A DNA stretch of 64,000 bases. Origin: Pithys albifrons albifrons (lineage: Eukaryota > Chordata > Aves > Passeriformes > Thamnophilidae). The translations under genes were made by a program, and so were the position numbers. The DNA is taken from contig NC_092486.1 in NCBI RefSeq assembly GCF_047495875.1, positions 1,896,479 through 1,960,478 on the forward strand, read 5' to 3'. Every line of letters starts with the position of its first letter. The stretch's first letter is position 1. Shown here piece after piece: positions 1,890 through 36,037 of this stretch. The notes below the pieces were generated by a model. It searched no databases. It was not told the DNA's origin and saw only the letters and a program-made list of their open reading frames with translations.

Positions 1890-2033
1890 ATCCGGAACCT
1901 CAACAGCGGCTTCTCCCGGCTCCGGACTCTGGTGCCGCTGGTGCCCCGTGACCGCCGGCCCAGCAAGGCAGACACGCTGCGGGCAGCGGCCCAGTACATC
2001 CGCCTGCTGCGGGGGGTGCTGCAGGACTGCCAG
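1890..2033 (+). CDS. FIGLA: FIGLA exon: helix-loop-helix
   Basis: 48 codons between acceptor gtctcccag (ends 1889) and donor gtgggc (2034). Residues 1-15 form helix 1, DRRPSKAD the loop and TLRAAAQYIRLLRGVL helix 2. The last 39 bases of this exon are the seed of the tandem array that follows. Confidence 0.88.
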
Positions 2034-34300: not shown

Positions 34301-36037
34301 GGATGATCCAGGTGTAGACAGGGACGTCCAGGTGAGGGGAGAGATGATCCAGGTGAGGGCAGGGGCATCCAGGTGAGGGCAGGGATGGCCCAGGTGAGGG
34401 CAGGGATGGCCCAGGTGAGGGCAGGGATGGCCCAGGTGAGGGCAGGGACGGCAGGGGCATCCAGGTGAGGGCAGGGATGATCCAGGTGAGAACAGGAAAA
34501 TCCAGGTGAGGGCAAGGAGATCCAGGTGAGGGCAGGGAGATCCAGGTGAGGGCAGGGACACCCAGCTGAGGGCAGGGATGATCCAGGTGAGGGCAGGGAT
34601 GATCCAGGTGAGGGCAGGCACATCCAGGTGAGGGCAGGCACATCCAGGTGAGGGCAGGCACATCCAGGTGAGGGCAGGCATGATCCAGGTGAGGGCAGGC
34701 ATGATCCAGGTGAGGGCAGGCATGATCCAGGTGAGGGCAGGCATGATCCAGGTGAGGGGAGGGACACCCAGCTGAGGGCAGGGATGATTCAGGTGAGGGC
34801 AGGGATGATCCAGGTGAGGGCAGGGATGATCCAGGTGAGGGCAGGGATGATCCAGGTGAGGGCAGGGACATCCACATGAAGATAGGGATGATCTCGTTGG
34901 GGCCAGGGACAATCCAGGTGAGGTCAGGGACACCACAGGGACAGCCAGATGAGGGCAGCTGAGGTGACCCGGGGACAGTGGGAGCTCCAGGTGGGAATTG
35001 CAGCTCCACCTCTGTGCCCCAGCAGGTCCCCACGCCGGCACCGCTCCAGCTCCTCGTCACCAGTGCGGCCCAAGGAACGCCGGGATGAGGAGAAGAAGGA
35101 GCTCAAGGACTCCAAGAAGGAGAGACAGATCACAGGTGAGGGGAGGATTTTCCTCCTGAAACACTCCCACATTCCCTGCGGGGCTGGGACCAGCCCAGGG
35201 ACACAGGGATTTTTGGGAATCCCAATGTCCATGTTTGCCCAATCCTGGATTTCATTCCCTCAGAGGAGGATTTGCAGGGCAAGACAGAGGAGGAGATTGA
35301 GATGATGAAGATGATGGGCTTTGCCTCCTTTGACACCACCAAGGTGAGTGCAGGGCCTGAGGCCACTCCATGGGCTCCATGGTGTCCCCTGCCCCATCTG
35401 GGGACAATCCATGGGATTTTGGGAATGTTTCTCCTCAGGGGAAGAAGGTGGACGGTGCTGCCAACGCCTACGCCATCAACGTGTCCCAGAAGAGGAAATA
35501 CAGGTGTGTCCCACCTGTTTTGGGATAGAGAGAGGGTTTGTTTGATGAGGTAACTGTGGCCTCTGCCCTTGGGGTGATCCAGCTTCCAGGCCTTGGGAAA
35601 ACGGGAATTCTGTGGGGTTTAGAGGCAAAACAGGTGAGGGGAATTTGGATTCCTCTGGAAATGGGGAAATCCAGGGGATGAGGAGGGAGGAGCGTGTTGG
35701 GAACAGGTGGGATGTGCCCAGTGTGGGGCTTGGAGCACTGGGAAGTGATGCTGTTCCACCTGGTTTATTCCCAAAAAAACCCCAGTTTGTCCATGCTGTT
35801 CTCTCTTTGATGGGAATTTGAGGGTGGAGCCACTCACTGGGAGCCTTCCTGCCATTTTTGGTCAAATCCCTGAGGAATTGGGTTCCCTGTAGCTGCCCAG
35901 CCCCATTCCCAGCCCTCCCCGGGGTGTTTGTGTCCCGATTTCCCTGGATCCAGGGGCTGACTCCGGCTCCATCCCGGCTTAGGCAATACATGAACAGAAA
36001 AGGAGGATTCAACAGACCCCTGGATTTCATTGCCTGA
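31308..36037 (+). CDS. SNRNP27: SNRNP27, U4/U6.U5 tri-snRNP 27 kDa protein
   Basis: SNRNP27 (27K) is an RS-domain protein of the U4/U6.U5 tri-snRNP that acts in 5' splice-site handling during spliceosome activation. Six coding exons (31308-31344, 33929-34049, 35026-35135, 35264-35343, 35439-35503, 35983-36037) total 468 nt, giving 155 residues plus stop, the same length as the human protein. The N-terminal half is Arg/Ser-rich (MGRSRSRSPPRR, STSRDRDRRRRERSRSRDRD). The C-terminal half is the conserved SNRNP27 domain (LQGKTEEEIEMMKMMGFASF, GKKVDGAANAYAINVSQKRK, GGFNRPLDFIA). Kozak context ggccatgg is strong. All phases agree and no defect is visible. Introns 1 and 2 are minisatellites. Confidence 0.96.
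31345..31890. repeat. G-rich minisatellite, SNRNP27 intron 1 (part 1)
   Basis: Units of roughly 20-30 bp (gggggaggacaggggggcaa) begin within about 30 bases of the donor. Almost purely G and A with scattered C. Confidence 0.9.
31890..32480. repeat. ggggtgagggatgagg repeat, SNRNP27 intron 1 (part 2)
   Basis: Degenerate ggtgagggatgaggggtgag units, then three copies of a roughly 50-bp unit with ggtgatgggggtctgtggga near 32340-32460. It contains very many donor-like ggtgag words. Confidence 0.88.
32605..32930. repeat. Long polypyrimidine tract, SNRNP27 intron 1
   Basis: About 320 bases of nearly pure C/T (cctcctcctcctccttctcc, ctcctttctcctcttcttc). It is followed by cctcctcagctttttgg, which resembles an acceptor with no recognisable exon behind it. 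Confidence 0.9.
33100..33845. repeat. ggacatg minisatellite, SNRNP27 intron 1 (part 3)
   Basis: Array based on gggacatggggacatggga and ggacacagggacatgagg, built from 6-7-bp steps. It ends about 80 bases before exon 2. Confidence 0.92.
33929..34049 (+). CDS. SNRNP27: SNRNP27 exon 2 (RS domain)
   Basis: Encodes the RS-rich stretch RRRSRSTSRDRDRRRRERSR onward. Acceptor ctgggcag ends at 33928; donor gtgagg at 34050, phase 2. The last bases (gatccag) seed the next array. Confidence 0.95.
34050..34975 (+). repeat. SNRNP27 exon 2-end/5' splice-site minisatellite
   Basis: About 40 copies of a 20-24-bp unit gatccaggtgagggcaggg: the last 7 exon bases, the intact donor and a short purine spacer, repeated immediately after the real donor. 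Variants replace gatccag with catccag or caccccag-like words but nearly all keep ccaggtgag. Confidence 0.93.
35026..35135 (+). CDS. SNRNP27: SNRNP27 exon 3
   Basis: Reads SPRRHRSSSSSPVRPKERRD through KKERQIT. The acceptor is a NAGNAG pair (ccccagcag, ending 35022 or 35025), so one codon may be optional. Donor gtgagg at 35136. Confidence 0.94.
35264..35343 (+). CDS. SNRNP27: SNRNP27 exon 4
   Basis: Encodes EEDLQGKTEEEIEMMKMMGF then ASFDTTK, the start of the conserved domain. Acceptor attccctcag ends at 35263; donor gtgagt at 35344. Confidence 0.95.
35439..35503 (+). CDS. SNRNP27: SNRNP27 exon 5
   Basis: Encodes GKKVDGAANAYAINVSQKRK then Y and part of Arg. Acceptor ttctcctcag ends at 35438; donor gtgtgt at 35504. 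Confidence 0.95.
35983..36037 (+). CDS. SNRNP27: SNRNP27 exon 6 (terminal)
   Basis: Encodes QYMNRKGGFNRPLDFIA and stops at tga 36035-36037. Acceptor cggcttag ends at 35982. A 3' UTR of about 270 bases follows. Confidence 0.95.

What the first reader, a model, noticed from the sequence alone, without database searches (positions are those of the whole stretch)
1890..34975. Minisatellites seeded by exon ends and 5' splice sites in three neighbouring genes
Four arrays (FIGLA 2034-3110, ADD2 10668-14130, ADD2 22662-23350, SNRNP27 34050-34975) have units made of the last 7 to 48 exon bases plus the real donor and the first intron bases. In other introns (ADD2 8 and 13, SNRNP27 1) a tandem array starts within about 30 bases of the donor. 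One random event would not repeat in independent introns, so the exon-intron boundary itself seems to be a hotspot for tandem growth in this region. Possible drivers are G-rich R-loops downstream of donors or slippage between ggtgag words. The result is introns with tens of decoy donors.
Basis: partly seen in the sequence, partly recalled or inferred. Interest (0 to 1): 0.88.

Follow-up and report, generated by a model that had tools for sequence, protein, structure and literature searches.

The report
Exon ends stuttered into bird introns
In a bird genome the ends of four exons, each with its splice site, are repeated head to tail between 4 and 41 times in the neighbouring intron, likely through the instability recently described in chickens as exon stuttering, and this is probably tolerated because splicing is predicted to keep using the original site.

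Summary
The four arrays are real. Exon tail (39, 48, 45, 7 nt), donor and first intron bases are repeated in FIGLA i2 (13 copies), ADD2 i3 (23), ADD2 i11 (4) and SNRNP27 i2 (41). The phenomenon is published as avian "exon stuttering" (PMC12954441). Three arrays pass that paper's BLAST criterion; SNRNP27 does not.

The donor-hotspot reading is only partly supported. Boundary copies occur at 4 of 16 donors and 0 of 17 acceptors, but intron positions 60 nt inside are copied in 10 of 16 (donor side) and 4 of 17 (acceptor side). Five arrays starting within 40 nt of a donor hold no donor copy. Two arrays are G-rich, two C-rich on the sense strand.

New details: two founding junctions share 5-6 nt of C3-4AG (local chance 0.0016, 0.0018), making in-frame mini-exon-like units; ADD2 i3 holds a four-unit block duplication (97.7%); 57 of 81 decoy donors match the real donor for U1 pairing; no copied insert was seen among 120 listed adducins, 4 and 9 unalignable at the two junctions. 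Mechanism and donor bias remain inference.

The parts
1890..2033 (+). FIGLA (bHLH) exon whose last 39 nt seed the array; donor CAG|GTGGGC at 2034
2034..3110 (+). FIGLA intron 2 array: 13 copies of exon tail + donor + intron head found up to 3031; C-rich on the sense strand
2196..2887 (+). Four AG-39nt-GT exon-like copies in FIGLA intron 2 (2196-2234, 2345-2383, 2699-2737, 2849-2887), out of six full-length copies
   Evidence: use in splicing untested
10516..10667 (+). ADD2 exon 3, source of the 48-nt exon part; donor ACC|GTGAGC at 10668
10668..14136 (+). ADD2 intron 3 array, 23 copies; G-rich; identity to the exon falls with distance (rho -0.79)
11881..13047 (+). Four-unit block (about 580 bp) duplicated head to tail inside the ADD2 intron 3 array, 97.7% identity at aligned positions
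22572..22661 (+). ADD2 exon 11, source of the 45-nt exon part; weak donor CCT|GTATGG at 22662
22662..23354 (+). ADD2 intron 11 array, 4 copies of exon tail + donor between runs of gtgtccccag-type repeats; C-rich; 1, 0 and 0 stop codons in its three frames
22752..22796 (+). Exon-like copy of ADD2 exon 11 tail: CCCCAG|45 nt in frame|GTATGG, 90 nt after the real donor; a second one at 23104-23148; the other two copies have GG instead of AG
   Evidence: use in splicing untested
33929..34049 (+). SNRNP27 exon 2; last 7 nt GATCCAG are part of the unit; donor CAG|GTGAGG at 34050
34043..34958 (+). SNRNP27 intron 2 array, about 20-bp unit GATCCAGGTGAGGGCAGGGA, 41 copies, 38 of 41 keep GT, 33 of 41 as strong for U1 as the real donor
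18049..18684 (+). ADD2 intron 7 array (50-bp unit) starting 10 nt after the donor, no donor copy found
24282..25173 (+). ADD2 intron 12 array (41-bp unit) starting 7 nt after the donor, no donor copy found
31382..31888 (+). SNRNP27 intron 1 array starting 37 nt after the donor, no donor copy found

Best explanation
Three of the four arrays meet the published test for avian exon stuttering and the fourth (SNRNP27) works like it: the end of an exon, its 5' splice site and the first intron bases are repeated head to tail in the adjacent intron, an arrangement that likely began as single tandem duplications at short shared sequence, likely grew by copying inside the array, and is likely tolerated because the exon-proximal donor still defines the exon. 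Shown here: the arrays and their exon origin; 5-6 nt of identity at two of four founding junctions; a four-unit block duplication in ADD2 intron 3; a codon of the real exon that none of 21 copies carries, which points to growth inside the array and not to repeated copying from the exon. Inferred: that seeding falls more or less anywhere in this tandem-rich domain, and that selection removes events that cross acceptors or exon interiors but lets through those crossing donors, because the first donor transcribed is the correct one and needs only about nine bases, whereas an acceptor also needs its tract and branch point. Not shown: which donor is used, and whether the agent is end-joining repair, replication slippage or meiotic exchange.
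For: Exon-derived copies in adjacent introns pass the published screen in 3 arrays (5, 18 and 4 hits over 42.1 bits; best non-adjacent hit 24.3, highest in 20 dinucleotide-shuffled runs 32.2). The source runs up to the exon border in all four, as in more than 90% of the chicken cases (PMC12954441). Junction identity 5 nt in FIGLA (P=0.0016) and 6 nt in ADD2 i11 (P=0.0018) against local pairs. Block duplication 11881-12459 v 12460-13047 at 97.7% of aligned positions, 93% counting gaps. Codon GGC of the exon in 0 of 21 copies spanning it. Identity to the exon declines along ADD2 i3 (rho -0.79, n=23 non-independent copies). Arrays largely spare exons: 114 of 2879 exon bases v 76% of complete-intron bases. 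Setting as described for dot-chromosome euchromatin: tandem arrays cover 61% of 1-36 kb v 6.6% of 36-64 kb, and dispersed repeats recognised by self-match 0% v 33%. Proximal donor use is supported by protein: pig beta-adducin has no insert at either junction, and of 120 listed adducin proteins 114 are contiguous at e3/e4 and 111 at e11/e12, and none holds a repeated 8-mer by the filter used.
Against: Two of four founding junctions show no microhomology (ADD2 i3 0 nt, SNRNP27 1 nt), though the first copy read today may not be the founder. Distance gradients are not significant in FIGLA (rho -0.31, p=0.29), ADD2 i11 (rho -0.8, n=4, p=0.2) or SNRNP27 (rho 0.07, p=0.67). The donor-side skew at +60 v -60 (10 of 16 v 4 of 17) lies outside the splice sites, so constraint at the splice sites does not obviously explain it. 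Hron et al. say that acceptor sites are also copied in chicken, so the donor bias here may be small-sample. The SNRNP27 exon part (7 nt) fails the published criterion. No RNA, no second individual and no other bird genome could be examined.
Confidence: 0.7

Rival explanations
1. The exon-intron boundary, or the donor-side start of the intron, is a mutational hotspot: R-loops, G-quadruplexes or transcription stalling just downstream of donors start tandem growth there.
For: 4 of 16 donors v 0 of 17 acceptors; arrays begin nearer donors than acceptors; +60 is copied more often than -60 (10 of 16 v 4 of 17, p=0.037); G4-type motifs are dense on the sense strand of ADD2 i3 (250 overlapping matches).
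Against: The donor itself is copied less often than +60 and about as often as -60. Arrays also fill 40% of the ADD2-SNRNP27 intergenic stretch. Two of four arrays are C-rich on the sense strand and SNRNP27 has no strict G4-type motif on either strand. Five other donors with an array starting within 40 nt carry no donor copy. Without the four donor-spanning introns the +60 v -60 difference is not significant.
Confidence: 0.17
2. The repeated donors are kept because they do something: tens of U1-binding decoys would regulate splicing or block premature polyadenylation.
For: GT is kept in 78 of 81 copies and 57 of 81 decoys pair with U1 at least as well as the real donor. Donor bases +1 to +6 are more conserved than the exon part of the unit in three arrays (0.976 v 0.923, 0.986 v 0.884, 1.0 v 0.951).
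Against: The donor hexamer is hardly more conserved than the following intron bases of the same unit (0.976 v 0.952, 0.986 v 0.960, 1.0 v 1.0, 0.964 v 0.960), and in SNRNP27 less than the exon part (0.993). The two ADD2 donors are weak for U1 (-4.7 and -1.9 kcal/mol).
Confidence: 0.04
3. The copies are alternative exons or exon extensions under coding constraint.
For: AG-39nt-GT (4 of 6 full-length copies, FIGLA) and AG-45nt-GT (2 of 4, ADD2 i11) in phase 0; the ADD2 i11 junction acceptor outscores 12 of 21 real acceptors in a window-trained matrix; substitutions in ADD2 i3 copies fall mostly on third positions (27, 29, 71), and in ADD2 i11 6 changed codons are synonymous v 4 not.
Against: Non-synonymous changed codons outnumber synonymous ones in ADD2 i3 (63 v 38) and FIGLA (14 v 5); variable columns by codon position in ADD2 i3 are 8, 4, 8 of 16, so the third-position excess reflects few inherited changes; no copied insert seen among 120 listed adducin proteins, the only insertion at e3/e4 (2 dipper isoforms) being unrelated to the unit.
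Confidence: 0.05
4. The arrays are assembly artefacts.
For: Such regions are hard to sequence (PMC6792250, passages), and ADD2 exon 13 shows a one-base frame break in a C run.
Against: Copies differ by up to 17% with a block structure, and the general structure of comparable chicken PHF8 arrays was verified in raw nanopore reads.
Confidence: 0.04

Closest known systems
Avian sequence / exon stuttering (Hron et al. 2026, PMC12954441; abstract, sections 7, 8 part 1, 9 and 16 read, plus found passages)
   Same: Direct tandem repetition of the edge of a coding exon with its splice site through the adjacent intron; source at the exon border; exon part tens of bases (20-187 there; 39-48 in three arrays here); introns nearly filled with tandem repeats; euchromatic, TE-poor setting.
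   Different: Chicken, mostly dot chromosomes there (190 of 236 introns); here a different bird and a gene, ADD2, that in many other birds lies on a contig of roughly 4-8 Mb, with shorter and longer exceptions (chicken chromosome 22 by recall). Junction microhomology, mini-exon form, block growth and decoy strength were not found in the parts of the paper read. SNRNP27 has a 7-nt exon part, below that paper's 20-nt limit.
Intron or exon gain by tandem genomic duplication (AGGT model; potato RdRp case PMC4974935, abstract and outline only)
   Same: A tandem duplication crosses an exon-intron boundary and supplies ready-made splice sites.
   Different: There one duplication across an intron-exon boundary produced a new intron; here many copies across a donor, with no evidence that any new site is used.
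GC-rich 'hidden' avian genes with introns made of tandem repeats (Beauclair et al. 2019, PMC6792250, passages only)
   Same: Introns consisting of G/C-rich tandem repeats with G4 motifs.
   Different: Exon-derived units are not described in the passages seen.

Membership tests
[quoted passage not shown]
   all four arrays, by boundary copies
Avian exon stuttering (FIGLA i2, ADD2 i3, ADD2 i11) | blastn-short exon hit of at least 20 nt above 42.1 bits in the adjacent intron | tested here: met
   5, 18 and 4 hits
Avian exon stuttering (SNRNP27 i2) | blastn-short exon hit of at least 20 nt above 42.1 bits in the adjacent intron | tested here: not met
   no hit, exon part only 7 nt; filed as a donor-spanning minisatellite that works like exon stuttering
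Avian exon stuttering | Source sequence within 1 base of the exon border | tested here: met
   all four sources run into the donor without a break
Avian exon stuttering | Intron heavily covered by simple tandem repeats; exons largely spared | tested here: met
   cover 0.85-0.92 in the four introns; 114 of 2879 exon bases in TRF rows, 24 of them the ends of FIGLA e2 and SNRNP27 e2 and 90 in short rows inside ADD2 e1 and e12
Avian exon stuttering | Length variation among individuals | not testable with these tools
   one sequence only
Avian exon stuttering | Location on a dot chromosome (typical, not required: 190 of 236) | tested here: inconclusive
   chromosome of the window not given; ADD2 of many other birds lies on contigs of several Mb; TE-poor tandem-rich domain next to a TE-rich one
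Intron/exon gain by tandem duplication | Duplicate supplies both AG and GT in usable register | tested here: met
   4 of 6 full-length FIGLA copies and 2 of 4 ADD2 i11 copies; the ADD2 i3 copies read have no AG at the junction and SNRNP27 was not examined for it
Intron/exon gain by tandem duplication | New site is spliced into mRNA | tested here: inconclusive
   no copied insert seen among 120 listed adducin proteins; no RNA; FIGLA proteins not searched

The most novel reading that the evidence does not exclude
Exon stuttering is an exon-birth engine: because founding duplications join at acceptor-like CCCAG words inside the exon and the intron, units arrive as complete in-frame mini-exons (acceptor, 39 or 45 nt, donor), so FIGLA and ADD2 in this bird make tandem-repeat isoforms, and donors are favoured over acceptors because splicing commits to the first donor transcribed.
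Probability: 0.1. Interest if true: 0.78.

Novelty: new member of a known kind. Interest (0 to 1): 0.45.

Why it matters
It shows exon stuttering in a bird other than chicken, possibly off the classic dot chromosomes, and gives concrete candidate founding junctions for a process whose mechanism its discoverers call speculative. It is also a natural experiment on splice-site choice: SNRNP27 i2 offers 33 decoy donors that pair with U1 as well as the real one, so if the right donor is used, sequence at the donor alone cannot be what selects it. If the donor bias holds genome-wide, selection through co-transcriptional splicing, and not local mutation, would shape where these arrays survive.

Tried and rejected
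Codon-position test for coding constraint on copies: ambiguous. R-loop/G4 as a common driver: rejected because 2 of 4 arrays are C-rich on the sense strand and SNRNP27 lacks strict G4-type motifs. Donor seeding of the ADD2 i1, i5, i7, i12 and SNRNP27 i1 arrays: rejected, no boundary copy. Lariat or spliced-RNA reinsertion: rejected because units are contiguous unspliced exon+intron DNA (sequence itself). Placement arithmetic: with ancestral introns of 300-500 bp and units of 20-140 bp a random seed would span a donor in 4-47% of survivors; 27 blocks of score 100 or more lie in the introns, several of one family, and four families span a donor; too loose to decide, so used only to say that no excess is needed. 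Self-BLAST for block structure gave one hit in the four arrays with the settings used and was replaced by direct alignment. Literature searches: 0 papers; 1 unrelated paper; 0 papers. I make no wider claim that donor-v-acceptor counts are unpublished: only those searches and the sections named were seen, section 8 part 2 of the main paper was not read and supplements could not be opened. Looking for MXD1 in the window by tblastn gave no hit. On re-checking, the exon-interior hit (ADD2 i11) overlaps the copied segment, so it is not an independent exon-interior case.
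Full report
WHAT WAS CHECKED. The window holds three genes on the + strand in its first 36 kb: a bHLH gene read as FIGLA, ADD2 and SNRNP27. Exon models (one end corrected) were tested against solved proteins: ADD2 exons 1-12 against pig beta-adducin, SNRNP27 against the human protein over all 155 residues, the FIGLA exon as an HLH domain. The closest ADD2 protein cluster is named from the manakin Chiroxiphia lanceolata at 98% identity, followed by many other bird adducins, so the window is a bird, probably a passerine.

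THE ARRAYS. Four introns contain head-to-tail copies of the end of the upstream exon, its donor and the first intron bases: FIGLA intron 2 (39 exon nt, 13 copies beyond the source), ADD2 intron 3 (48 nt, 23 copies), ADD2 intron 11 (45 nt, 4 copies) and SNRNP27 intron 2 (7 nt, 41 copies). Copy numbers are those above score cut-offs that I chose. Boundary 24-mers at these four donors exceed all 60 dinucleotide shuffles by a wide margin; none of the other 12 donors tested does. Introns under 140 bp were left out of that test and three partial introns with arbitrary outer limits were included.

ALREADY DESCRIBED. Hron et al. 2026 (PMC12954441) named this 'exon stuttering' in chicken: 236 introns in 115 genes, 190 on dot chromosomes, source within one base of the exon border in more than 90%, exon part 20-187 bp, 1-44 copies. 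Three arrays here pass their BLAST criterion, SNRNP27 does not. FIGLA, ADD2 and SNRNP27 are not named in the main text. The authors note slightly raised intron length variation on chicken chromosomes 22, 25 and 33, and Huang et al. 2023 (PMC9974502, passages) see no sharp line between microchromosomes and dot chromosomes; that ADD2 lies on chicken chromosome 22 is recalled, not tested.

DOMAIN. TRF arrays cover 61% of 1-36 kb and 6.6% of 36-64 kb. Dispersed repeats seen as self-matches more than 5 kb apart cover 0% and 33% (elements present once in the window would be missed). This resembles the euchromatin/heterochromatin split described for dot chromosomes.

HOTSPOT OR PERMISSIVE EDGE. Boundary copies: 4 of 16 donors, 0 of 17 acceptors (p=0.044). 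Controls: +60 in the intron 10 of 16, -60 in the intron 4 of 17, exon interior 1 of 16, that one overlapping the copied part of ADD2 exon 11. Array edges lie a median 16 nt from donors (n=13, 7 donors without an array in the intron) and 87 nt from acceptors (n=15, 6 without), p=0.0066; paired p=0.034, 10 of 13, sign test 0.09. So donors are hit more than acceptors, less than intron at +60 (p=0.07) and about as often as intron at -60. The simplest reading, which is inference, is a process that seeds widely and a filter that removes seeds where they would disturb splicing. The filter would be asymmetric because with duplicated donors the correct one is the first transcribed, while with duplicated acceptors the wrong one comes first. 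Against this, the +60/-60 skew (p=0.037; 6 of 12 v 3 of 13, p=0.23, without the four donor-spanning introns) lies outside the splice sites and leaves room for a real donor-side preference of growth; for that the hotspot rival stands at 0.17.

HOW THE ARRAYS GREW. In FIGLA the first copy joins the intron at AGCCCCAG|TAC where the exon reads CGGCCCAG|TAC (5 nt shared, P=0.0016 over 1924 local pairs). In ADD2 intron 11 GTCCCCAG|TCA meets GGCCCCAG|TCA (6 nt, P=0.0018 over 5994 pairs). ADD2 intron 3 and SNRNP27 show 0 and 1 nt. In ADD2 intron 3 a four-unit block is duplicated (11881-12459 v 12460-13047, 97.7% at aligned positions, 93% counting gaps). The exon's GGC codon appears in none of 21 copies spanning it, so later growth was probably inside the array. 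Identity to the exon falls with distance there (rho -0.79) but not significantly in the other three.

DECOYS. GT is kept in 78 of 81 copies. U1 duplex energies are at least as favourable as the real donor's in 13 of 13, 7 of 23, 4 of 4 and 33 of 41 copies (ViennaRNA duplex, not a splicing predictor). Proteins argue for use of the proximal donor: among 120 listed adducins, e3/e4 is contiguous in 114, has an insertion in 2 (two dipper isoforms, sequence unrelated to the array unit) and is not alignable in 4; e11/e12 is contiguous in 111, inserted in 0 and not alignable in 9. Only the best 120 of 6231 matches were listed, they are cluster representatives, and many are from other vertebrates, so this is a weak test for this bird.

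MINI-EXONS. Because the FIGLA and ADD2 i11 junctions are C-run + AG, 4 of 6 full-length FIGLA copies and 2 of 4 ADD2 i11 copies have the form AG-(39 or 45 nt in frame)-GT; the other four lack the AG or the GT. The ADD2 acceptor-like junction at 22752 and 23104 scores above 12 of 21 real acceptors and above 97% of intronic AGs in a matrix trained on this window; the four FIGLA ones score above 5, 6, 9 and 16 of 21. The first ADD2 one lies 90 nt after the real donor, and the gene models here include introns of 72, 95 and 107 nt. Nothing shows that any is used.

VERDICT. Real, clear, and a new instance of a published avian phenomenon. A donor hotspot is not needed to explain it but is not excluded; the microhomology junctions, block growth, donor-over-acceptor skew and mini-exon form are useful additions that need genome-wide counts and RNA.

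Noticed in passing
window 36000-37400: Sharp change from a tandem-repeat-rich domain without detected dispersed repeats to a dispersed-repeat-rich, tandem-poor domain; the repeats look CR1-like by recall.
   Followed up: partly
window 25199-25298 (ADD2 exon 13): One-base frame break in a run of eight C; related bird adducins read through in one frame, so an assembly or homopolymer error is likely.
   Followed up: partly
window 49240-50079, 53774-54922, 59664-60480, 62863-63924: A dispersed element with similar long open frames in several copies on both strands; family not identified.
   Followed up: no
window 53886-54354: CCCAT pentanucleotide array, about 94 copies.
   Followed up: no
window 29989-31098: Long tandem arrays run up to about 200 bp before the SNRNP27 start codon, so tandem growth also fills sequence upstream of the gene without any donor.
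   Followed up: no
window 14965 and 22662: Two ADD2 donors (GCT|GTACGC and CCT|GTATGG) pair very poorly with U1 (-0.7 and -1.9 kcal/mol) although the conserved protein implies that they are used.
   Followed up: no
protein P0005 and P0044 (Cinclus cinclus), after residue 154: Annotated isoforms carry a 15-residue insert at the exon 3/4 junction that ends like an intron 3' end (PLWQ), suggesting an upstream acceptor in the corresponding intron of that bird.
   Followed up: partly
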